Program-made: the position numbers and the translations under genes
The notes under the pieces: generated by a model
What the model was told of the DNA's origin: nothing
The model's database searches: none
The model's input: the letters and a program-made list of their open reading frames with translations, nothing else
Shown: positions 10,013 through 50,800 of the stretch, piece by piece
Position numbering within the stretch: the first letter of the stretch is position 1
Layout of the letters: each line of letters starts with the position of its first letter
DNA from: Diabrotica undecimpunctata
Lineage: Eukaryota; Arthropoda; Insecta; Coleoptera; Chrysomelidae
Length of the DNA stretch: 64,000 nucleotides
Assembly: GCF_040954645.1 (NCBI RefSeq)
Contig: NC_092803.1
Span: 122,655,961-122,719,960 of the forward strand
Direction of reading: 5' to 3'

Positions 10013-11758
10013 TCAATTTTCCTCATCCGACTCTTCTTCGCTCTCAACTGAATCAACTTCGAGCTCGACTTTAGGAGGTACATAACTCTTTGAATTAAGA
10101 TTTTTATAAAATCCATGGTACATTGTGGGTATTTTACCGGTATTACACAGCCACAGTAATCCTTTTAGCTTTTTTTCTTCAATTGGTAATGGTGCATCAT
10201 ACAGTTTCGGTGGAAATTTGATAGTAGTGGAAGGCCGTCCTCTGCATTTTCGATTTAATTTTATGTCACAACCTCTAAAACCATCATCGAATTCGTATTT
10301 AAACATTATAGAATTTTGGTGTTCATGCGAAAATTTTATTTCTCGTATTTTGCTAACTTTTATTGATTTCTTTTCGTTGTCAAGTTTCCAATTCTCGGTA
10401 TCAGTCAGTTTTTTAAAATTAAAAAAATTATCTTGGGACATTTCCGTAACATCATAAACTCTTCCTGTAGTTTTAGCCATTCTAATTAATGTAACCCACT
10501 GTTCTGGCACATATACAACCGATTGCCTTTTCTTTGCATTTTCGATAACAGCATGCATACTGTCACCCTCGTTCTGAGTGTGGCCTTTTTCCAGAAATCT
10601 GTGAACGATATCAATATGAAAATGAGCAGCAGCAAAAGCAAACATCGAAAACACAAAACGATTCCTATTTTGTCCCCCACAGTTGTCTGAGTAGAATATT
10701 ATCGTTTTAACACTTTGTTGTGCCTTGAGATCTAAAAATTTCCAGAGGCAACTGGAAATTTCATTAGGACCTCTTTTAGCCACCTGCTCGTGCCATACAT
10801 AGCAGTAACCCTGATTATTTCCAACATCATAAACTGTAAAGTTATATGTAGAGTATTTGCTTTTGTAGTAAAAATCACTTACGTTAGACAAAGGGGTAGC
10901 TAAAACCTTTTGAAGGTCAAAGCAAGCCACACACAAGCTCTTGTCATCTAGTGCAAGCTGTTTGTCTATGTCTTTTAAGTTTCTGATAACTTCTTTGTTT
11001 TTCATATGGGACTCATATTGTTCGAGCAATTTTGCTTTTTTAGCATCACTAGCCATATTAAAAACAGAACAAACAGTACACTGGTCCTTTTTTGGTTTAA
11101 AGAACCCAATATTGAACTGTTCATTGAAAATATCTCTATACTGGCGTGACGTGGCAGCTGTAGTGATGTTATTTTTTTTCGCAATGCTCGTTGTACAATC
11201 GGTACATTTTCTGGATAGTTAGCCCTTCTTCAAGGTACATCTTCATCTTATTCTTAAGGGTATAATGGGAAGGTACTACAGAAAACTGATTTATGTGATT
11301 TTTACGTTGTCTATAAGTTCTGGTGATAGTTTATGTGGTCTGTTAGTGTGCTTTCCACGTTTATCTTCCTCTAATGGTCCACCATCTTTCAGTTTCCTTA
11401 ATGCTGCAGTGATCCAAGTTTCTGAAACGTTAAGGGTTTCCAAAAACATAGTTTTGCAAACACGTTGTTTTTCATTGCGAATGTAGAAGTAATATTCTCG
11501 AGAGAAATTTCTTCGAGACCGTTGTTCTGCAGTAATAGTTACTTGTTTTTTGGCAACCTGTCTCACATGACGAGTAATAAAATCCCACTTTCTCGTATGA
11601 TCTTTTAACTTCCAAAATTCATTGAAAAAAAGGTCTCTATCTTTTTTAGCTATTTTGGTAGCACATTTTAGTCTACATGTGTTTGCGCATGGTGCACCCA
11701 TCTGTCTTCCTTTAATTTGAATACCTTTTCGATTTTCATGTTCAAGAAGGAATGTCAT
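10013..11758 (-). pseudogene. DUF7869-type transposon protein, two frameshifts
   Basis: There are two large frames: 11758-11291 (155 codons) and 11056-10013 (347 codons), with the linking sequence readable in other frames. The N-terminal part has the Cys-rich start (CANTCRLKCATKI) and a basic R..D..FFNEFW segment. The middle part ends in a CTVC pair just before 11056. The C-terminal part contains FYSDNCGGQNRNRF and GHTQNEGDSMHAVIE, the hallmark blocks of the DUF7869 proteins that occur in many copies in insects. The chain is broken by one missing base in an A-run near 11305 and another in an eight-A run near 11177. The Asp in SDNCGGQN and the acidic residue in GHTQNEGD are candidate catalytic positions (inference). 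The tail is strongly acidic. Confidence 0.75.
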
Positions 11759-18365: not shown

Positions 18366-21300
18366 ATGAGTGCTATACCAGGAAGTATTGCCTTTGATGA
18401 ATATGGACGACCCTTTATAATTCTTAGAGATCAAGAGAACCAAAAGAGATTGACCGGGATAGATGCACTTAAGGTAGGTTATGTTTTGATTTTGCAAACT
18501 GTTTTATATTTTCTAGTTTTTTTCTTAATTTATTATATATTTTAAAAGACACACATTTATTATAAGTACAATGATTATAAATATTTGTTTTAGTCACATA
18601 TTTTGGCAGCGAGACAAATCGCTCAAACAATAAGCACTTCTTTGGGTCCCAAAGGTTTAGACAAGATGATGGTATCACCTGATGGTAGGAAATGTTCATA
18701 ATACTCGTGATACAATTCGTGTAACAATATTTACTTTCCAGGTGAAGTAACAGTCACTAATGATGGTGCCACTATTTTGAAAATGATGGATGTGGAACAT
18801 GAAGTAGCTAAATTGCTAGTACAGTTATCACAATCCCAAGATGATGAAATTGGTAATATATTTATTATTTTTTATTGACACATTTTAAAAGTTATTTATT
18901 TACCTATTTAGAAAATAATTAAAAGAAAAAGTTTCAAAACAATTCTTTCTAATTTAGCTACCAATTCTAGGTCAACAGTAATTTGTTAATAAAACTGTCA
19001 GTAGGAATTGTATTTATAAATTTAATTTGTTTTTCAATTGTGGTTGCAGAATATATGCTCTTATTTTTCAGCAGTGTAAATTCATGTTATGATAGTCATC
19101 TAATTAAATAACCCGTTCTTAAAAAAATCTTAAAAATAAGTTCTATAGTGTATTCAAAATAAAGATGATTTGGGAATAAACAGAATCTCGCTTATATACA
19201 TAAGAAGCCATAGGTGTTGTTTTGCTTTCCTATTAAATTATTAAAACAAGTAGAGTTGCTACTTGTTTTAACAAGATTTGGTTTCAGTTTGTTGCAAATG
19301 CAATTAGTGAATGTTGCTTGTTAATCATTGTATTTATTTTTTACTTTTATTTCCTAAATGGACTACTGAAGTTTGATGTCACAATGGGCAGGGATTAAAA
19401 ACCTCTCCAAACATTTCTAATTTGTGTATACTTGTCCCATAAGAAGTTGGAAATATTGTTCTTTTTTTAATTGTTTGAAGAATAAATAAGGACTTTTCGT
19501 TATGAACATTCATTCAGCATTTGGTATTATTTGTTGTTGTTCCTTCAAGGCAAGCCTTTCTGGATGGTTTTTCGACTGAATTAAAGAATCTGTCACATCT
19601 AAATGTCAGTTAAAACATGTTCATTTTAAATTTGCAGTACAGTTATAAATTTTCACATATAGTAACTGCAAAATAATTATTGTTGCACATCATCTCCTTA
19701 GAATGTATGATACTGCCTTATATCTGTAAATAATGGTGAACAGTCAGTTTCACTTTAAAGGTACCACATTAATGAACTTAAAAATTATTCTTTTTTAATG
19801 TTTATAGATAATATAAGACAGTATCATATGTTTTAAGGTAATCCCGTGCAATGATAATTGTTTTGCATTTACTATAGTAGTTAATTTCCACTTCAAGAGT
19901 AAATTAAAAATCAGTTTATTTTTTGGTAAAGGAAAGAGGTTGATCGTTTGTAATCTTGTTAGTGACGACAAATTTGCTCCTGATACCTTATGGGCTTTTG
20001 AATAAAAAAAGTGTGGTGACTATCATGAAGAGATGATTGGCGAGTCATTTGAAAAGTAGTTCTTTTCGATATTAGATAAACTAGACAAAAATTCGGTGAA
20101 AAAATCAAATAGTATTGAGTCTTCTACCATACCACTGTGAGCTCAATCCAATTGAGTTAATTTGGGCAGACTTAAAAAATTATATTGCAGAGAAGAATAT
20201 GATTTTTAAATTTTCAGATATGAAAGATCTTTTTAATGAAGAATCGTGAGTATTACATCTACAAAATGGCAAAAATGTATATAGCATGTTTAGCAGAAAG
20301 TTAAACAAAAGATGTGGAATCTTGTCAATATCATTGAGACAAGTTGAACCACTGATAATTAACATAGTTAATGGTAACAGCACGCCAGACTCTGATTCTG
20401 AGTAAAATATTAATTTACAGTTTGAGTTTTTTTGTTTTATTTATTAGTCAGATACATAGAATGTCTTTATTTTCGACAAATGATTTTTCTGACCTTTGTA
20501 TAGGTTTTTGCTACTTTGAAACTTCGTTTTCCTTAATATGTTGTAATTATACATATATGTTCTACTTGTTTAATATTATTGATGTTGTTTTCTTTGGAAC
20601 CCTTCTTTTTATTTGTTTATATACACTATAAAAAATATTTAGTAAATCTGCCAATTTAAATATTTTAAGAAATTGTAACCCTCATTAAACAAGGTAGAAT
20701 TACTAAACTTGTAAGTGTAGTGAAATGTACTACTCAAAATTTTAGTAGTACATTTAATGTAGTACATTTGAGTTGCAAGTGAGTACATAAAATTACCAGT
20801 GCTAAAATTCCAACAGAATTACAGTAGTGTCAGTTAAATGGCTCATGCAAATTTACTACTATTGTAAGCAGTCACGATGTCAATATTGTTATTTTCTTTT
20901 TACCATCTTTACCATTAAAAATATTACTTAAATTATATATAATATTACTGTACTGTACATACAGTGATGTATAATTATTCAACATCATTTTAGGTGATGG
21001 TACCACAGGTGTTGTTGTTCTGGCTGGTGCCCTTTTAGAGCAAGCAGGATCTTTAATAGACAAAGGTATTCATCCCATAAGGATTGCTGATGGCTTTGAG
21101 CTAGCTTGTCAAACAGCTGTAGCTCATTTGGAAAAAATTGCTGAACTATTTCCAGTATCAGCAGAAAACACTGAACCTTTAATAAAAGTTGCAATGACCA
21201 CACTGGGATCTAAAATCATTAACAAATGTCATAAACAGATGGCAGAAATAGCTGTTAATGCTGTTTTAGCTGTTGCAGATTTAGAACAGAAAGATGTTAA

Positions 21301-21877
21301 TTTTGAACTTATTAAAGTTGAAGGAAAGGTAGGTTTTATTTTTTGGTACATGAATTGTGTTTTAGTTAGTGATTAATATACAATGCCTTTTAATGGGTTA
21401 GCTTAACATTAATTTTTATAGAGTTTCTATTTAAATTACATTTTATTTTTCATTTCAACTACTATCAATTATTTGTAGAGTTTTTTATTCGCAAATATTT
21501 GCCTCATGCTTCAGAACGGAAAAGGAAGAATCTGACATAAGTTACATTCAATTTGACAAATTGATGTTTCACTGAGAATATGAAATAATTATATTCTCTA
21601 ATTATAATTAGATTTTTTTTACCACAGGCAATATGGCATTGTAGTAACAATACAACAATCATAATTCCGCTATAAATCAAATGCATAAAAATAATAGAAA
21701 TCAAAAGTTATGTTGGCACACATGGATGTAAAAAAATTACAGATAACATGCTTCTTTTCTAACTTGGCTGAACTGTACAACCAATATTCAGAAATAATTA
21801 TATTTTTTTTCTTTGTTGTGAGCTATGCTGATACCTTCTACCTTTATTTTACTATTAACTCGCATTAACCATGTTCT

Positions 21878-40924: not shown

Positions 40925-41564
40925 TTCAGATACATTTTTACGCGATATAATGTTGGTTTAAGTACCCCAAAAACTGACTCATGTTCAACGTGTCTTCAAT
41001 TTAAAGACAAACTAAAAATCGCCTAGATGCTGGCACAAAATATCAGATAATGGTTCATCAGCGTTTTCACAAAAGTTAAGCTAAATGTTTTTAGGAGCTG
41101 AGAAAAAACAAGAATATGCTGACGTAGTGACATTGAGCTTTGATTGCCAAGAAAAAGCTTAGTATGTACTCCTAAAAATGACAGACCAATCAGCCTTCTT
41201 TGATATGCAACTAAATTTCTACCATTTTGCGATAGATGAAAGTTCGAAGGGAATATTGAATCCATCTACAGTTATGTCGTATGTATGTGCAGAACTGGAT
41301 CATCAAAGGAGGCCTAACGAAATAGCGTCAGCACTATACCATAGCCTCACATTTGAATTTAGTAACAATGCAAAAACCGTTCGCCTCTCCTGTGATGGCT
41401 GTGGCGCTCAAAATAAGAACTCCATAGTCCACAGTAAATTTAAAATCAGGCATAAAGTTGAAATCTCTATTCCAGTTGTGGGATATTCGTACATTTTACC
41501 AGACAGACTTTTTGACCAAATTGAAAAAACTATTAAAATAACGCCTGAAGTTACGTGTCCTTAA
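40925..41564 (+). pseudogene. DUF7869-type transposon protein relic, second copy
   Basis: In broken frames: YNVGLSTPKTDSCSTCLQFK near 40950-41010, SFDCQEKA near 41140, and then an open frame at 41178-41564 with DQSAFFDMQLNFYHFAI, a DGCGAQNKN block (the counterpart of DNCGGQNRN in the copy at 10013) and VVGYSYILPDRLFDQIEK. The last block is typical of the family and normally continues further; here it stops at 41562-41564. Several stops before 41178 show that it is dead. No terminal inverted repeats were found around it. Confidence 0.7.
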
Positions 41565-41882
41565 CGATATTTTAAAATAATAAATAATTTTTTTATATGT
41601 TCCTGTATTATGACAAAAATCTGAATTATTTACTTTTATTTCACGTACTAATAGATCATTGTAAACAAATGTTTTATTACTTAACTTATTTATTCATTCC
41701 TTAGTCACTAATGAGTTAAAAGTGTAATTTAAGCTTTTATCCTACAGGAAAAGGTCCCACCCAACACAAAACGTTTTTTTGTGAGAACAGAACAACTATG
41801 AAACGTATTCGTATGCGTATTTCATTTATTATTTTTTTAACTCCTTTGTTATAAACAAAGTTTTGGTATCATGAATATTTAT
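41565..41882. other. Unassigned flank of the Gypsy element
   Basis: The place where the 3' LTR of the minus-strand Gypsy element would be expected, but after the first nine bases it does not match the 5' LTR. The 3' LTR is therefore lost or heavily diverged here. Confidence 0.4.
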
Positions 41883-42061
41883 CGTAACATTGCCCCCCTC
41901 TTAAAAGATGGTTCCTCCTGGAACCTTGTCGGGACTGAAACTGGAACGGTATGCTGGTATCGGCAACTGGACCCTCTTTTACAACTTCCAGTTGTATAAA
42001 AATGACAAGGGACGGTTTTCTCTCCGCACCAGTAACTATGCGGATTGCAATAAACTAACAC
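41879..42061 (-). pseudogene. CCCH zinc finger at the C-terminal end of the Gypsy polyprotein
   Basis: The frame contains CHFYTTGSCKRGSSCRYQH, an exact C-x7-C-x5-C-x3-H zinc finger of the RNA-binding type (as in tristetraprolin or U2AF35 proteins), followed by a short Pro/Val tail and a stop directly before the polypurine tract. The segment just upstream (VYCNPHSYW) matches the last strand of a macrodomain, so macrodomain and finger belong to one chain that is now broken by a frame change near 42070. Being the last coding segment before the LTR shows that it belongs to the element. Confidence 0.75.
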
Positions 42062-42539
42062 CTGGACTTCGGTGTTAGTCCTCCACCATACTTCGGATAA
42101 CCCTCCAATCTAATTGGCGTCACTCTAACTTTGGCATGGCTAACTTTTGCACGTCGGACTCTGGTACGTGCTCTCTCAATTGAAGTAAGGCTTCCCATAC
42201 ATCTCGGTAGGTAGGTTGGTCACGGGCAGTGTCTTTTGTTACCAGGTAGAAAAGGTAACGTGATGCATCTTGGAGTTTCAAGGCTTTCCCGGGAGCTGGC
42301 ACTTGGCATTGAAGTTCTGCAACTCGACCGAACTTTCTTCGAAATACGGATGCCAACCCTGTTGCGTCTTTGATACTGGCCGGGATGGTAAGGGCCAGCG
42401 AGTAGTCATCGGGAAGCGCGAGTAGATCTTGCTCGTCTTCAGTGGTAATACCATGTCTTGCTTTACCGGTACCTCCATAGGCACCCATGAATTCCTCAAA
42501 CGTAAAGTCAGACACATCTTGGACTTGGTTTACTTCCAC
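42062..42539 (-). pseudogene. OARD1-like ADP-ribose macrodomain in the Gypsy element
   Basis: The 139-codon frame 42539-42120 contains, in order, SLALTIPASIKDATGLA (counterpart of the first ADP-ribose loop), VFRRKFGRVAEL, SRYLFYLVTK (with the lysine equivalent to the catalytic Lys of OARD1), PTYRDVWEALLQLREH and KLAMPKLE. After a TGA, LDWRVIRSMVED continues in the same frame, which is the final helix of the fold. The Gly-rich second loop of active enzymes (IGCGLD-type) is shorter and not recognisable here. The frame is the same as that of the RNase H piece (42953-42753) and of the integrase start (PKSRIAEVLRQLHDGPSGG at about 42600-42660), so it was probably the tail of pol. Confidence 0.8.
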
Positions 42540-44173
42540 TTTTTCATCTACGTCGTTCCCGTTCCCGAATTCACTGAAGGGTTTTCTTTACACCAAAAGC
42601 CCTCCTGATGGACCGTCGTGTAACTGACGAAGTACTTCGGCTATTCTGCTCTTTGGGATCACCAACTGTCTTCTCTTCTCTGAACCGTCATTATCCGTCA
42701 TAGCCGTCATCTGGCTATCTGACCTTCTGGATTCTTAAACTGCATCAACCACTTAAGGGCGGCATGGTCGGTTCGGATTAAAACTTCCTTCCATAGGGTA
42801 TTGATAGAAATGCTCTACTGATTTCACTACTGCTAGAAGTTCTCTTCTCGTGACGCAATAATTCCGCTCAGGTTTTGAAAGAACTTTACTAAAATATCCA
42901 AGGATTCGTTCTTGTCCTCCTTGAATCTGAGACAGCACTCCTCCAATTCCCACATTACTTGCATCTGTATCTAAGATGAACTCTCCTTCTGGCAGCGGAT
43001 ACCCTAAAATTGGTGCTGTGATTAAATGCTTTTTTAAGGTCTCAAAGGCATTTTGGCAGTCTGTATCCTGCGGTAATCTCTTGCTTTCTCTGTAAGTCGC
43101 GTTAATGGCTTAGCGATATCTGCAAACTTCTTAATAAACCTCGGGTAGTAAGTACATAGTCCAAGAAAACTTCTCACTTGATGTTTGGCCGTTGGTACTG
43201 GCCATTCCTTAATGGAATCGATTTTTCCCTTATCCACGACCACTCCTTTACTGACTATATGACCCAGATAATTGACTTTACCTTGAAATAGCTGGCACCT
43301 CTTGGGGTTTAACATCAATTGGGCAGCTTTAAGTCGATTAAGAACGTTTTCTAAATTCTTCAGATGATCTTCAAATGTCTCCCCCAATACGATTATGCCA
43401 TCTAGGTAAACCAGGCATGTTTTCCAAGATAATCCTCTCAAAACATTTTCCATAAACCTCTCAAATGTCGCAGGAGCATTACAGAGTCCAAATGGCATAA
43501 CGTTGAATTGCCACAATCCAGATCCTGTGGTAAAGGCTGCCTTCTCTTTATCTACTGGGTCCATTTCTACCTGTCAGTATCCAGACTTCAAATCCAAAGT
43601 AGAAAACAAGTTACTTCCAGCCAATGTGTCCAATGTATCGTCGATCCGAGGCAGAGGATAACTATCTTTCTTGGTAACGTTGTTCAGCAAACGATAAACC
43701 ACACAGAACCTCGTCGTTCCGTCTTTCTTCTTAACCAGGACCACCGGAGAGATCCATGGGCTCGTAGAAGGTTCTATCACCCCGTCTTTCTTCATTTCCT
43801 GAACAATCGTTTCAGCTTCCTCTCTTTTCGCCTGTGGTAATCGTCGAGCTGTTTGTCGAATTGGCTTAGCATTACCAGTATCAATTTTATGCTTAACAAC
43901 GGTTGTTCTTCCCGACTTTCCTCCTTTCGGTACGAAAATATCACGATACTGCCGAAGAAATTCCCTTAATTTCCTTTTTTCCATCTGATTTAGAGACTGT
44001 CCAGCAACTGCAACCATTTGGTCGAATTTGTCGTTGGAATTATCAGATGTTGTCGCCTGACGGATTATAGATGTCACAGGTACACAAGTTCCTACTTTTG
44101 TCTCTTTCTTGATGGTCACTGGGTAGTCATTGACATTGATAAGTCTCACAGGAATTTCTTTATTCTTTCTCAC
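42540..44173 (-). pseudogene. Gypsy reverse transcriptase, RNase H remnant and integrase start
   Basis: Frame 44173-43574 carries the RT fingers ([50 protein letters not shown] with the first catalytic Asp) and ends in TGA where the family has Trp. 43564-43034 continues with FGLCNAPATFERFME and the active box YLDG, where YLDD is expected, so the second Asp is lost. Then LGHIVSKGVVVDKGKI and RSFLGLCTYYPRFI follow. 42953-42753 is the RNase H start (GIGGVLSQ, RELLAVVKSVEHFY), which breaks up at TDHAALKWLMQFKNPEGQIAR. Only the N-terminal LHDGPSGG zinc-binding lead of the integrase remains before a stop at about 42592. Confidence 0.9.
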
Positions 44174-44628
44174 ACAATTCCCTGTAGCCGCGCTACTATG
44201 ATCGTTTCGCTTCTCGCAAGCACGACTGTATCTTCTTTAATGGCTGCTTGCACAGTGTTGTCATCATGTGGATGAAGAAATACCTCCTCGTTGCCAACTT
44301 TGATTACCTTATTCTGAAAATCCAATTGGAATCCATGCATATTCATTACGTCCATTCCTAATATAACATCCTCTTTGATGTCAGCAACTATAACAGTATG
44401 GACGAATTTTTCTACTCCAATTCCCAATTGTACCTGGATTTCTCCATGAATGTTGGCATTTTCACCTGTAGCGGTCCGAAGTCGCAACCTCGTTGGTAAC
44501 AGTTTCTTACGGCTGTTTATAACTGTCGGGCGTATAATGGTTCTGGTCGCTCCGGTATCCACCAACAACGTATGTCTTTTACCATTTATTTCTCCATCTA
44601 CATATACACTATCTTCACGACATTTCAA
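44170..44628 (-). pseudogene. Gypsy aspartic protease segment
   Basis: The frame contains LLVDTGATRTIIRP (active-site Asp-Thr-Gly) and VILGMDVMNMHGF (the second ILG(M/L)D hallmark of retroviral-type proteases), followed by a linker to RT. It overlaps the RT frame by four bases in a different register, indicating another slip. The DTG triad is intact. Confidence 0.9.
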
Positions 44629-44699
44629 AGAAACTGTTAGTATGAGAGGGTCTTTGGAAAAGTTCCGGGTCGAAGCTGCCCCCCTAAGGCCGACCCGTT

Positions 44700-45963
44700 C
44701 TAGTTTTCCTGGTGGTGAGTTTCTTGATTTGCGTCGTACCTAGGGTGCTTACATGAACTTCGTACGTGTCCTATTTCGCTACAATTCCAGCATCTTATGG
44801 TCTTCGTTTTCTTGTATGTCATACTTTTCATCATATTAACAAGCTGGTCAAGTTTATCTTCATCTCCTTCCTCTTTTATAGTCCTAACTTTACTGTACCC
44901 GCCAGAGGCCTGCGTAGCTGACTCGTATTCGAGGACGGCGAATAAGACATCAACCAGCGTCTTGTGACGAGCTAATCGCAGTGTTCTCTGCATTTCATGA
45001 TCACGAAGACCATCAATAAACATTTGAACGGCCAATTTTTCCATAATGTCTTCGGGAGCTGTTGGATAAGCATATCGTACTAATCTGGCAATATCTACCT
45101 CATATTCTTGAAGGGCCTCATCTTTCTTCTGTCTTCGATTTTTAAGCTGCGACTGATATACATGCTCCAAATGTTCGTGGTCATATCGCATAATTAACCT
45201 CTTCTTCAGTTGTTCGAAATCATCTGTCTCCTCTACGGCTATGGTCTGAAGCACATCTAAGGCATCTCCTCGAAGAGCGATAGTCAGGTTTGCGGCGTTT
45301 TTTTTCAGACCATCCATTCGCTCTTGCGGCTGATTCGAACTGTTTCATGTAGTTGTTTCATGATGATTTTCCGGCGAAAGTTGGCACTTTATCATGAACA
45401 GAACCTCCACTTCCTTCAAATTTCGGCCGTGTTTCCAACTTACATTTCGTCTCGTCTTCTTTTGTCTCTACTGTAATTGGCTTATATCCTCTCTCTGCTG
45501 TCCCTGTTTCCTCCATCTTCCTTTCCATCTCTTTCATCTTTTCTTCGAATGCCAACTTATCGGCAGCAATTTGGTTTTTTAACGAAGATATTCTATCGTC
45601 CAGGTCAGACATCTCAGAAGTGACTTTAGAGATTTCCGAAGAGATATTAGCAGAAACTTTGCTTTCTAGAGAAGAAATCTCGTTAGAAACTTTGTTTTCT
45701 AAAGAAGCGATGCCACCAGAAACTTTGTTCTCTAATGATGCGATATCACCAGAAACTTTGTTCTCCAGTTTCGAAATCGACGAGATAACAGTAGCATGTT
45801 TGTCTTCAGATATATAAGTTTCTGGATCTAAATCATCTTGCTCCAAAGCGTTCTTTAGTCGTTGGACTAACTCAGCCTTTTTTCCGGTAGAAGCTAATTC
45901 TCTATCCTCGAGATGTCTTCTTAAATTCGTCACTGTGAGTTCATAAATCATAGTCATTTTCAC
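44700..45963 (-). pseudogene. Gypsy gag: SAP-like motif, hendecad coiled coil, capsid and CCHC knuckle
   Basis: ATG at 45963. Residues 8-40 read like a SAP motif (LRRHLEDRELASTGKKAELV), a helix-loop-helix that binds DNA. Residues 63-117 are five 11-residue units of (I)SSLENKVSxx type, a coiled coil of hendecads. A TGA at about 45356 stands where the next segment NNYMKQFESAARANGW continues in frame, and one extra A in an eight-A run near 45300 shifts to the second frame 45317-44700. That frame carries the capsid (ALRGDALDVLQT, QEYEVDIARLVRYAYP, FIDGLRDHEMQRTLRL) and a CWNCSEIGHVRSSC zinc knuckle (C-x2-C-x4-H-x4-C). Confidence 0.85.
45613..45777 (-). repeat. 33-bp in-frame tandem repeat in gag
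   Basis: Five degenerate 33-bp units encoding the 11-residue coiled-coil repeat, central unit IASLENKVSGG. Confidence 0.85.
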
Positions 45964-45997
45964 AATTTATTTTATATATTCCACTTCTTAACACCAA

Positions 45998-46455
45998 TGT
46001 TATATTTTTATTATTAATCTAATTTATTGTTTTTTTTTTATTTATTATTAAAGGTTTTATTTATAACGCTTAAAAATTTATTAAAGTCTTTATTACTAAT
46101 TTATCTTACACTAATAATTATATAATTTATTATAATACGTGCGTTACATTTTAAAACCCAACGCGATGTTCAAAAACTGTCTGTTTACAACAAAATTCCT
46201 CTAAATATAAAATTCCGTTATTCGAGAATTGCCGCGATTTCCCATCGGAGAGCCCAGAAGGTCGCTCAGACTGGTTTTATTCGGCCTGCTTTTGGAAATT
46301 TCAAGTCGCGGTGACTCATCAGAAGCGGTGACTCATCATAATTCAGGTAGACAGGTCTTTCAACTGAGAGCCGAAATAACTAGAATAGAAAAGATATTAG
46401 TAATAAATATGTTTACAGTTTTGAGTCATATCACACGTCATTATCCATCGTAACA
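45998..46455 (-). repeat. 5' LTR of the Gypsy element
   Basis: On the minus strand it starts TGTTACGATGG and ends TATAACA, i.e. TG...CA limits, 458 bp. It is followed by TTGGTGTTAAGAAGTGG, a primer-binding-site-like stretch common in insect Gypsy elements, and the gag ATG lies 35 bp further on. The start TGTTACGAT recurs at the polypurine tract (41889). Confidence 0.7.
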
Positions 46456-47843: not shown

Positions 47844-50800
47844 ATGGTTGAATTCGAAGACATGGCTTACAGAACCAAATGTAGTGAAAGAACTCTACAA
47901 ACTGAGGTTAAAGGATTTTTTATGGATTTTGTGGAATTGGTCAAAGATCGAGCCGGTAAAACATGGATTCAAAACACTTTTGGCAAACTTAAATCCGACT
48001 CTGAAAGAATAAGGAGTATTTATGCTTCCGATGAGGTAAATAATTTATCTGTTTCATCATTATTCATTTAGAACGACAAAGGCAAACCTTGAAGACTATG
48101 GCGTAAAGTTATCATTTCCTATCATATCACAACAGTTATTAGAAATCTCGAAAAAGTATAATCTTAAAATTAAAAAAATATTTTTTCCGAAGTCTAGTGT
48201 TTTATCGATATTAACTAATATAAGTGGCCTTTTATAACTTATTAATAATGGCCAAGAAATTTTACTAAAAACTTCTTGGCTTAGAATATTCTTGCTGTAA
48301 AATTAATCTAAAAAATGTTACATTTATTGGATATTGTTTTGATTTATTACCAAAAGTATTATTTATTGAATAAGAGAAGTATTATTTATTTATTGAATAA
48401 GAATTTTTTTTATATTATTACACGGAATCTCAGAAAATAATATCTAAGTTTAGGTATAGGAATGCTTCATAAAAGTAAAAGTGAAAGAGTGGAATAAATA
48501 GGTACATTTTGAAAAAGTTGAATACAGTAATATCCCGAACTTACGTGGTAGGTGGGACCGAGCGATAATCGCGTAAGTCGATTTCGCGGAGTATAATTAT
48601 TTCGTATATGTATGTATATAAATTATTTTAATTGGGGCCAGAAGAGAAGAAAAAATAGCAATTTACACAAACAAATTTTTATTAAAATCTTAGGATATAC
48701 AAATATAAAATTGGCAATTCAATTTATTTCGATGTAGAAGGCTTTATAAAATCTAACAAAGTAGTTTGACGACTCAAAGATTTTTTTTCTCCCGCAAAAT
48801 TTATTTATAGCAGGCTAATAATTTTTTTATCGCTTGTTTGGTAGAAGAAATGCGCTCTTCGTTGTGATCTATATTTTCTAAAACTTTTAATCCCTTTTCA
48901 ATTAAACTGAGACCTTCAGTCAAGTTTTCAATCGGCATTTGATCCTTAGATTGAACTGGATCCAAACACTCAAGCTCTTCAATGTCTTGTTCTTCCTCGT
49001 GCATTTCTATGAGGTCATCTATTGTCAGCTCCTGATTATGAGAATTCAACAGTTCTTCAACGTCATCACTTCATCACTATCAACTTCTAAATTTATTTGC
49101 TGGGCGAAATCATCAACTTCTTTAATAACATTACTAACTCCATCATGCTCTGGCATCAATTCCATTTTAGTATCATTGATGAAAAAAAGGACACTTTTCC
49201 AGACGCCATTCAACGTTTTTTGTGAAACTCTATTCCAAGATTGTTCAATGATTGTCACTGCATCTAACACGTTGAATTGTTTCCAAAAGTCTTTAACAGA
49301 GAGCTTATCGTTTTTTCTTATAACTTCATGGAGATGTGCAAATGATCGTTTGGTGTAATAAGTCTTGAATGTTTTAATGACTCCTTGATCCATCGGCTGA
49401 AGTAAACTGGTTGTATTAGGTGGCAAAAATTCAACTTCACACGTGGGTCAAAACTAGTTAAAGTTGGAGGAGGATGACCTGGAGCGTTGTCGATAATTAG
49501 CATCACTTTAAATGGAATTTGTTAAGATTGACAATAACATTCGACTTCAGGTATGAAATGATGACTAAACCAATCCTCATAAAGGGAAGCTCTAACTCAA
49601 GCTTTACAATTAGACGTCAAAATTACATGCAAGCCAGATTTAGATTAATTTTTTAGTGTTCTTCAAAACAGGCCAGTCTCATCTATATTGAATAGGGTTT
49701 GTTTGGTGTAGCCACATTTATCTATTATGGCTTTTAATTTCTGTGGATAACAAGACGCAGTCTCTTTATTAACACTTACCACTTCTCCGCTTTCTGTAAC
49801 CAACCCTTACTGGCTTTAAACTGTTCATCCTTAACGATTTCTTCAGTATCCTCTTTCAATCTCTCAAAAATTAGCTTAGCTTGGAAGCATATTCTATTCT
49901 GATCAATAGCACACTTTTTCACATTTACCTCATTATGACACCATAATTTTAACATTGTCTCCATTTCGGCGATAATACCATGACGTTTACGTACGATGGT
50001 GGAATTTAAAAATTGTGCACTTTTCACAACTTCGAGAATTTTTTTTTTCTTTATAATTGTTCTGACCGTTGATTCCGATAGATTAAACTTCTTTGATAGT
50101 TCACAGAATTTTATTTTTGATTCAAAATCTGTAATTACGTTAAGTTTACATTCCAAAGAAAACGTTTTTCTTTTCTTATTTGCTACAGAAGGATCAGTTT
50201 TACTTCGTTTGGATGACGTCATTCCTCTTTCAAGTCTTCAGTAGATATAAAATAAAAATCCCGCTATAAAAGTAACAAACACCCACTTCGTAGACAAAAC
50301 TGTAGATAAGAAATACCTAATACAAAATAAATGTGCTGATTTCTTGCGAAAAGTCAAAACATGTACTTTGGATGAGCAATAATGTGTTGGCGGTAATTCT
50401 ATCTAATCGATAATCGAACGATTGTGTGGTACTCAGATGACGAATCAACAAGATTTGAAAATCGTGTAACTCTGGATTCGCGTAAGTCGGGGTAGCGTAT
50501 GTCGAGGAATTACTGTATAGGGTCGTACATTTAAAAAATATAAGAAAATGGTATGAGTAATTAGTATGACATTGAGTAATTAGATGATTGATGAGTAATT
50601 AGTATGAAAATGGGAGTGCGACAATGGGAATTACTGGCACAGGACCGACAAACATAGAAGGCAATAGTAAACGCGGCAAAGACTCACGAAGAGTTGTAGC
50701 GCCATTGATGATGATGATGATGATGATGAATTAGTTTGACAAGAGGTAGGATTTCGACGCTAGGTGATACTATTCATCAATCCCTACCGGAAGGCGTTAA

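What the first reader, a model, noticed from the sequence alone, without database searches (positions are those of the whole stretch)
41879..42539. A Gypsy-type retrotransposon carrying an OARD1-like macrodomain and a CCCH zinc finger at the end of pol
Downstream of the integrase start and ahead of the polypurine tract, two frames encode an ADP-ribose macrodomain of the OARD1 type (GLASVFRRKFG, SRYLFYLVTK with the catalytic-type Lys, PTYRDV, KLAMPK, LDWRVIRSM) and an exact C-x7-C-x5-C-x3-H finger. The macrodomain frame is the same as that of RNase H and integrase remnants, so it was probably part of the polyprotein. Macrodomains erase or read ADP-ribosylation and are known as countermeasures in some RNA viruses; CCCH plus macrodomain also recalls host PARP13-like restriction factors. 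A retrotransposon bearing this pair could use it to resist ADP-ribosylation-based defence or to bind RNA. I know of no standard Gypsy description with this cassette; the functional idea is inference.
Basis: partly seen in the sequence, partly recalled or inferred. Interest (0 to 1): 0.88.

Follow-up and report, generated by a model that had tools for sequence, protein, structure and literature searches.

The report
Macrodomain-bearing beetle Gypsy retrotransposon family
An abundant, recently active family of jumping genes, probably in a leaf beetle, carries at the end of its integrase a protein module related to the enzyme OARD1 (which removes ADP-ribose tags) plus a zinc finger; selection appears to keep the module, although two branches of the family have each lost a different one of the two known catalytic residues.

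Summary
Window 46124-41875 (minus) is a broken Ty3/Gypsy copy whose pol ends in an OARD1/TARG1-type macrodomain (E 1e-14) and a CCCH finger. It is no private insertion: a natural polyprotein from elsewhere (P0004) has RT, RNase H, integrase, macrodomain and CCCH in one frame. In the window's own 1.74-Gb genome the best 150 of 5231 candidates were scored, and 150 of 150 are uninterrupted; 29 of 29 other loci have macrodomain and CCCH in one frame; 17 of 20 RT-ranked places hold the macrodomain; 9 of 9 measurable chosen copies have exact 4-bp target duplications, eight with identical LTRs. A second lineage (to P0004: RT 78%, macrodomain about 47%) has the same module. Macrodomain pN/pS is 0.32 and 0.23. 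The TARG1 Lys84/Asp125 pair is broken differently in each: the window's lineage keeps Lys, lacks Asp; the other has Arg, keeps Asp. I favour a non-enzymatic, integrase-fused reader, placed like a chromodomain, over a counter-defence eraser; this mechanism is inferred. Fish retroviruses with macro domains are a precedent; my searches showed no Gypsy case.

The parts
41875..46124 (-). extent of the degraded Ty3/Gypsy copy (lineage A) that aligns to L039, one of the fetched copies
   Evidence: blastn against four printed A copies, 90-96% identity; internal deletions at 42559/42556, 42708/42694 and 44173/44162
45358..45966 (-). gag N-terminal part: SAP domain and four 33-nt (11-residue) repeats
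   Evidence: PF02037 SAP E 1.8e-7; repeats at 45638-45769
44700..45344 (-). gag core and CCHC knuckle
   Evidence: PF03732 Retrotrans_gag E 4.7e-8; PF00098 E 0.0017, below its cut-off
44170..44739 (-). aspartic protease
   Evidence: PF13975 E 1.2e-12
43034..44236 (-). reverse transcriptase in two frames (44236-43574 and 43573-43034)
   Evidence: PF00078 in both pieces, the first below its cut-off; 156/176 identical to P0004
42710..43109 (-). RNase H, frame-broken
   Evidence: PF17919 E 1.1e-30; tblastn of P0004
42559..42659 (-). remnant of the integrase H2C2 zinc-binding domain; integrase core and C-terminal domain deleted
   Evidence: tblastn of P0004 780-845; about 0.97 kb missing between 42559 and 42556
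42120..42539 (-). integrase-macrodomain linker and most of the OARD1-type macrodomain, ending at a TGA
   Evidence: OARD1 E 1.1e-14; 89 of 139 residues identical to P0004
42078..42119 (-). C-terminal helix of the macrodomain after the TGA (RQLDWRVIRSMVED)
   Evidence: sequence; this stretch is in frame in 29 of 29 other loci
41879..42109 (-). frame holding the last macrodomain strand, the CCCH finger (42007-41951) and the pol end
   Evidence: PF00642 E 1.6e-7; CCCH in frame in 29 of 29 other loci, tail printed for six
41890..41906 (-). polypurine tract TTTTAAGAGGGGGGCAA
   Evidence: same tract before the 3' LTR in 9 of 10 fetched copies
41875..41889 (-). start of the 3' LTR (TGTTACGATAA); the remainder is lost
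   Evidence: LTRs of 9 of 10 fetched copies start TGTTACGA; alignment ends at 41875

Best explanation
Shown: this is one dead copy of a large, young Ty3/Gypsy family whose pol has a C-terminal accessory module, an OARD1/TARG1-type macrodomain followed by a CCCH finger, in one frame with integrase, present in two well-separated lineages; the macrodomain shows purifying selection. Inferred: the module stays attached to, or is cut from, the integrase end. The macrodomain works as a non-hydrolysing or weakly hydrolysing binder of ADP-ribosylated chromatin, protein or nucleic acid ends, while the CCCH finger binds RNA or DNA, so that together they tether the integration complex, much as a chromodomain at the same position does in chromoviruses.
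For: One-frame polyprotein P0004. 150 of 150 scored own-genome places without inner stops, 92 of 150 in open frames of at least 1400 codons. 150 of 150 scored places match integrase tail to CCCH contiguously. 10 of 10 fetched A copies have protease, RT, macrodomain and CCCH motifs in one ORF. 9 of 9 measurable copies have exact 4-bp TSDs, 8 of 9 LTR pairs without mismatch. Lineage B has the same layout. Macrodomain pN/pS is 0.32 (bootstrap 0.13-0.85) in RT-ranked A copies and 0.23 (0.13-0.39) in B. The Asp at OARD1 position 20 (adenine side; role recalled) is kept in 42 of 42 A and 18 of 18 B sequences. The catalytic pair is incomplete in both: A has Lys84 in 42 of 42 and Asp125 in 0 of 42; B has Lys84 in 0 of 18 (all Arg) and Asp125 in 17 of 17 readable.
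Against: No binding or integration data. The genome searches score only the best 150 candidates, which favours intact copies; in the RT-ranked sample 3 of 20 stretches hold no macrodomain and only 13 of 20 align full-length without gaps, one of them with an inner stop. In lineage A both ligand loops are changed (GAG to APG/ASG; loop 2 two residues shorter), so ADP-ribose binding itself may be lost. Lys-only DarG and dyad-less SCO6735 are active hydrolases, so a missing dyad does not prove a reader. Constraint on the CCCH tail is not shown (A linker+CCCH 0.24, bootstrap 0.03-2.07; B tail 0.76, 0.33-1.76). The macrodomain diverges faster than RT (64% against 89%), which also suits a counter-defence protein.
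Confidence: 0.45

Rival explanations
1. Counter-defence eraser: the macrodomain removes ADP-ribose put by host transferases on element proteins, RNA or cDNA, or on silencing factors, so that the element escapes restriction.
For: OARD1/TARG1 homology; Lys84 kept in lineage A (42 of 42), the residue that DarG also keeps without the Asp; weak DarG-model match (NF048014 E 1.7e-5, 24 bits against a cut-off of 250); fast divergence relative to RT; ADP-ribosylation of KAP1 by SIRT6 takes part in L1 silencing in mammals (PMC4695847 passages).
Against: Asp125 lost in A and Lys84 lost in B; both ligand loops altered in A; a retained hydrolase would be expected to keep one catalytic solution in both lineages (inference).
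Confidence: 0.22
2. Nucleic-acid binding tail: the macrodomain fold is only a scaffold, and with the CCCH finger it binds element RNA or cDNA to help packaging, reverse transcription or integration; ADP-ribose plays no part.
For: CCCH beside it in 29 of 29 A loci and 22 of 23 B loci; altered ligand loops in A.
Against: The Asp at OARD1 position 20 is kept in 60 of 60 sequences counted in the two lineages; B keeps much of loop 2 (IGHALD).
Confidence: 0.25
3. Passenger: a captured host fragment carried along without function.
For: Faster divergence than RT, and loss of catalytic residues.
Against: Open in both lineages although P0004 and B are only 78% identical in RT; macrodomain pN/pS with bootstrap intervals below 1 in both; inner stops in 0 of 150 and 2 of 150 scored places, although scoring favours good matches.
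Confidence: 0.05
4. Chance insertion of a host OARD1 fragment into this one locus.
For: The window copy is broken around it.
Against: The module is in 29 of 29 other loci, 10 of 10 larger copies, 17 of 20 RT-ranked places (macrodomain) and a polyprotein from another source; the OARD1-like gene of this genome, L064, found once, is only 38-39% identical to the two lineages.
Confidence: 0.01

Closest known systems
Chromoviruses (Ty3/Gypsy with a chromodomain at the integrase C-terminus)
   Same: Ty3/Gypsy pol order; an accessory protein-reading domain fused after integrase at the end of pol (chromodomain as a known accessory domain: PMC6338049, first of four parts of the text; details recalled)
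   Different: No chromodomain found in P0004; the module is a macrodomain plus CCCH, and its ligand is untested
Epsilon-like endogenous retroviruses of ray-finned fish with macro domain ORFs (Basta et al. 2009, through one passage of PMC4977317; the original was not held)
   Same: A reverse-transcribing element that encodes a macro domain
   Different: Described there as additional ORFs in vertebrate retroviruses; here it is the C-terminus of a Ty3/Gypsy pol, probably in a beetle, of OARD1 type, with a CCCH finger. The fish sequences were not compared.
OARD1/TARG1 (C6orf130), ALC1-like macrodomain class, with DarG and SCO6735
   Same: Whole-domain homology, E 2.3e-21 (P0004) and 3.9e-30 (lineage B); Asp20 kept
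   Different: Lys84/Asp125 dyad incomplete in both lineages; part of a polyprotein
Orchid Ty3/Gypsy elements with an AlkB-like m6A demethylase (PMC9289625, abstract)
   Same: A Ty3/Gypsy lineage that acquired an extra domain related to removing a modification
   Different: Additional ORF in 25-kb elements and demonstrated activity; here fused to pol with no activity data

Membership tests
Ty3/Gypsy LTR retrotransposons | protease, RT, RNase H, integrase in that order in pol | tested here: met
   P0004 domain order, its protease truncated and just below the PF13975 cut-off; window copy has PF13975 above the cut-off and the same order with integrase mostly deleted
Ty3/Gypsy LTR retrotransposons | LTRs with TG...CA ends, PBS, PPT, short target duplication | tested here: met
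   9 of 10 fetched A copies measurable; 9 of 9 with exact 4-bp TSD; B copy L088 LTR 271 bp, TSD ATAA, B copy L089 not resolved. Not met in the window copy, whose LTRs are mostly lost. The priming tRNA was not identified
Ty3/Gypsy LTR retrotransposons | RT phylogenetic placement | not tested
   No RT tree was built; assignment rests on domain order and Pfam hits
OARD1/TARG1 macrodomain | whole-domain homology | tested here: met
   Foldseek of a weak model (pLDDT 62) ranks five TARG1 entries first at E 4.3e-3 to 2.8e-2
OARD1/TARG1 macrodomain | Lys84/Asp125 catalytic dyad | tested here: not met
   A: Lys yes, Asp no (42 of 42); B: Arg at Lys84 (18 of 18), Asp yes (17 of 17 readable)
OARD1/TARG1 macrodomain | ADP-ribosyl hydrolase activity | not testable with these tools
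   needs protein assays
Pfam Macro (PF01661) | score above the curated cut-off | tested here: not met
   No match for the four A-type sequences scanned; a B sequence scores 16 bits against a cut-off of 22
DarG antitoxin (NF048014) | score above the curated cut-off | tested here: not met
   24.3 bits against 250 for P0004's domain, 16.1 for P0001, no match for the window piece
CCCH zinc finger (PF00642) | C-x7/8-C-x5-C-x3-H above the cut-off | tested here: met
   window 31.5 bits, P0004 22.6, B 25.6 against 20.5
Chromovirus | chromodomain after integrase | tested here: not met
   no chromodomain in the Pfam scan of P0004 at E 0.1
PARP13-like restriction factor | CCCH array with WWE and PARP domains | tested here: not met
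   one CCCH, no WWE or PARP hit in P0004; the definition is recalled

The most novel reading that the evidence does not exclude
A Ty3/Gypsy lineage has put an ADP-ribose reader where chromoviruses have a chromodomain, and with its CCCH finger it uses ADP-ribosylated chromatin or DNA ends as an integration landmark. The ancestral hydrolase was disarmed independently in two lineages, by losing opposite halves of the catalytic pair.
Probability: 0.25. Interest if true: 0.88.

Novelty: new variant of a known kind. Interest (0 to 1): 0.76.

Why it matters
Accessory domains fixed in retrotransposons point to the host process that matters to them. An OARD1-type macrodomain under selection at the integrase end of an abundant Gypsy family suggests that ADP-ribosylation matters for retrotransposition or integration in insects. 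The two lineages with opposite catalytic-residue losses make reader against eraser directly testable. It also suggests that beetle genes named 'ADP-ribose glycohydrolase OARD1-like' in public databases can be retrotransposon fragments.

Tried and rejected
Single-locus chance insertion: rejected. Passenger: disfavoured. An LTR pair in the window: none found; alignment to other copies shows that the LTRs are mostly missing. Structure: a 4-row alignment gave pLDDT 38, a 6-row one 62; Foldseek put TARG1 on top but with no match at E 0.001 or below, so the fold is only weak support. Relatives in viral contigs and in prokaryote genomes: none confirmed. A third protein search found only P0004 itself. 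A first pN/pS on copies ranked by macrodomain similarity (0.10) was set aside as biased by the ranking; an earlier value with misaligned rows (0.44) and a CCCH-tail value with one misaligned row (0.64) were also dropped. A neutral simulation gave only modest support (1% of 300 runs reach the observed share of conservative changes). Host origin of the capture: the OARD1-like gene L064 is 37-39% identical to the retro domains, so it is no recent source.

Full report
Observation. The region reads as described. On the minus strand from 45966 the window shows gag (SAP, gag core, CCHC), protease, RT and RNase H, a scrap of the integrase zinc-binding domain, and then a 155-codon ORF (42587-42120) followed by a CCCH frame (42109-41879). 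The ORF matches human OARD1/TARG1 at E 1.1e-14. Pfam Macro misses it. The CCCH passes its Pfam cut-off.

An intact relative. A search restricted to the macrodomain piece, with candidates of polyprotein length, returned one protein, P0004 (1339 aa, one 5313-base contig, organism not given; E 3.3e-53, 67% identity). Pfam places RT 304-464, RNase H 527-655, integrase H2C2 780-837, rve 855-948, integrase C-terminal domain 1098-1131 and zf-CCCH 1317-1339 on it; the protease match at its start is truncated and just below the cut-off. The OARD1 match lies between integrase and CCCH. It is one open frame. Three short UniRef proteins of Diabrotica virgifera virgifera, two named OARD1-like, are further relatives. 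One of them, P0003, starts with an integrase tail fused to the start of the macrodomain region.

Own genome. The genome search first answered. The window lies at C1:122655961-122719960 of a 1.74-Gb assembly. With the macrodomain piece, 5231 first-look places were found; the best 150 were scored and all 150 match (E at most 1.1e-82), none with an inner stop. One of the 150 is the window itself, and the cap favours intact copies. 92 of 150 lie in open frames of 1400 codons or more, 44 of exactly 1422, and 28 of 1700 or more. With P0004's integrase tail through CCCH as query, 150 of 150 scored places (6975 candidates) align over the whole 250 residues at 69-70%, so P0004 probably comes from another species. 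In the 29 loci other than the window (L005-L033), macrodomain and CCCH are in one frame in 29 of 29. From macrodomain start to stop this frame has 222 codons in 23 of 29 and 220-231 in the others; in the six tails printed the pol end lies at the polypurine tract and LTR start.

Youth and anatomy. I fetched ten copies, chosen by me mostly from rows with long frames, so they are not a random sample. In 10 of 10 the ORF with protease and RT motifs also holds macrodomain and CCCH. In 9 of 10 the LTRs could be delimited by motif (388-498 bp). 9 of 9 have exact 4-bp target duplications; 8 of 9 LTR pairs have no mismatch and one has one. The tenth, L039, has another LTR start and a 99.4% pair by blastn. 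Six copies have a gag frame of 419-439 codons ahead of a 1420- or 1422-codon pol in another frame; two (L040, L043) have one frame of 1810 and 1807 codons; L039 and L041 have a broken gag frame ahead of frames of 1430 and 1537 codons. The window copy is 90-96% identical to the four A copies printed and has three internal deletions.

A second lineage. Human OARD1 as query found, besides the gene-like L064 (48% identical, 760-codon frame, seen once), 149 other scored places (of 4795 candidates) that are 39-41% identical to OARD1; 2 of the 150 have an inner stop. I read 23 of these (3 returned loci and 20 picked from the list). All 23 match the reference copy; 22 of 23 have the CCCH in frame and one has a stop; 5 with a one-residue gap were left out of residue counts. 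Two larger stretches show 1414-codon pol frames with protease, RT, macrodomain and CCCH motifs. L088 has identical 271-bp LTRs and an ATAA duplication; in L089 the LTR end was not resolved. Against P0004, lineage B is 78% identical in RT, 42-43% in protease and 48% in the macrodomain; intact A copies are 93-94%, 81% and 69%. P0004 is closer to B (47%) than to OARD1 (35%), which with the shared CCCH and position suggests one capture before the split. Against that, B is 41% identical both to A and to OARD1, so separate captures are not excluded. No tree was built.

Selection. To avoid ranking by the macrodomain itself, I ranked copies by RT (159 matches, not all listed) and picked 20, including broken ones. 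The macrodomain is present in 17 of 20 fetched stretches; three hold none, which may mean truncation or displacement. 13 of 20 align full-length without gaps, one of them (L050) with an inner stop; in these macrodomain pN/pS is 0.32 (bootstrap 0.13-0.85), linker plus CCCH 0.24 (0.03-2.07) and the whole module 0.31 (0.15-0.66). In lineage B it is 0.23 (0.13-0.39) for the macrodomain and 0.76 (0.33-1.76) for the CCCH tail, on 20 of 25 sequences; B copies were found by likeness to OARD1, which lowers pN. The macrodomain therefore looks constrained; the tail is undecided.

Active site. Numbering of OARD1 residues follows my recall of the human sequence; Lys84/Asp125 as the TARG1 dyad is stated in PMC9411070 (passages). 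In A, Lys84 is kept in 42 of 42 sequences (29, 13), the position of Asp125 holds Arg after a two-residue deletion in 42 of 42, and loop 1 reads APG in 37 and ASG in 5. P0004 has Asn at Asp125. In B, Lys84 is Arg in 18 of 18, Asp125 is kept in 17 of 17 readable, and loop 1 holds MTKG in 14 of 18. Asp20 is kept in 42 of 42 and 18 of 18. L064 has both Lys and Asp. The same paper states that DarG keeps only the Lys and that SCO6735 has neither residue yet hydrolyses DNA-linked ADP-ribose, so loss of the dyad is suggestive only.

Mechanism. The position after the integrase C-terminal domain is where chromoviruses carry a chromodomain (recalled; chromodomain as a known accessory domain in PMC6338049). 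A fold kept by selection, with the catalytic pair broken in two ways, fits a binder better than an enzyme. I therefore favour a reader/tether with the CCCH as nucleic-acid grip. The eraser and the nucleic-acid scaffold remain open.

Literature. Full-text searches with combinations of macrodomain, macro domain, retrotransposon, LTR retrotransposon, Gypsy, retroelement, epsilonretrovirus, teleost, OARD1 and accessory domain (listings) showed no Gypsy element with a macrodomain. Only open-licence papers are held. I opened six: PMC4977317, PMC9411070, PMC8982398 and PMC4695847 (passages), PMC9289625 (outline, abstract, passages) and PMC6338049 (first of four parts, passages). The nearest precedent is the macro domain ORF in fish epsilon-like retroviruses. 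The host is probably a Diabrotica relative: the UniRef hits are from D. v. virgifera, and a paper on Diabrotica gives two ranges of genome size, 1.56-1.64 and 2.26-2.59 Gb (PMC8982398, start of abstract), the first nearer to 1.74 Gb. That is inference.

Noticed in passing
window 45358-45966 (-): The gag begins with a SAP domain (PF02037 E 1.8e-7) followed by four 11-residue repeats. A paper search for SAP domain with gag and retrotransposon listed 4 papers, none of which looked from its title to be about a SAP domain in a gag. My motif check for SAP in the intact copies found none, but the pattern was probably too strict to tell.
   Followed up: partly
L034-L043; window 44731-44791: Some copies have gag and pol in different frames with a short overlap, others (L040, L043) have one gag-pol frame of about 1800 codons; both kinds can have identical LTRs. 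The one-frame copies lack about 60 bases that the window has at 44731-44791.
   Followed up: partly
L034-L043 target sites: Target duplications are ATTG, ATAC, GTAT, ATAT, ATAC, AATG, ATAT, ATTG, ATAC: the inner two bases are A or T in 9 of 9, possibly a target preference.
   Followed up: no
L064 (G000:C3:100934209-100934613): A 760-codon frame, found once, with a canonical OARD1-type macrodomain (both catalytic residues) and a repetitive charged N-terminal part; perhaps the beetle's own OARD1-type gene.
   Followed up: partly
P0001-P0003 (UniRef, Diabrotica virgifera virgifera): Two proteins named ADP-ribose glycohydrolase OARD1-like and one uncharacterised protein look like fragments of this retrotransposon family.
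   Followed up: partly
window 41163-41564 (+) and 10013-11218 (-): Two ORFs with similar motifs (CDGCGAQNKN / SDNCGGQNRN, compared by eye); the second matches PF25273 DUF7869, the first has no Pfam match; probably other mobile elements, the first beside the relic's 3' end.
   Followed up: partly
window 49046-50237 (-): DNA transposon remains, perhaps pogo-like: DDE_1 (E 1.5e-17) and a CENP-B_N-like helix-turn-helix just below its cut-off.
   Followed up: partly
window 20975-21376 (+): Probably an exon of a TCP-1 chaperonin gene (PF00118 E 1.7e-29), a host gene in this transposon-rich window.
   Followed up: partly
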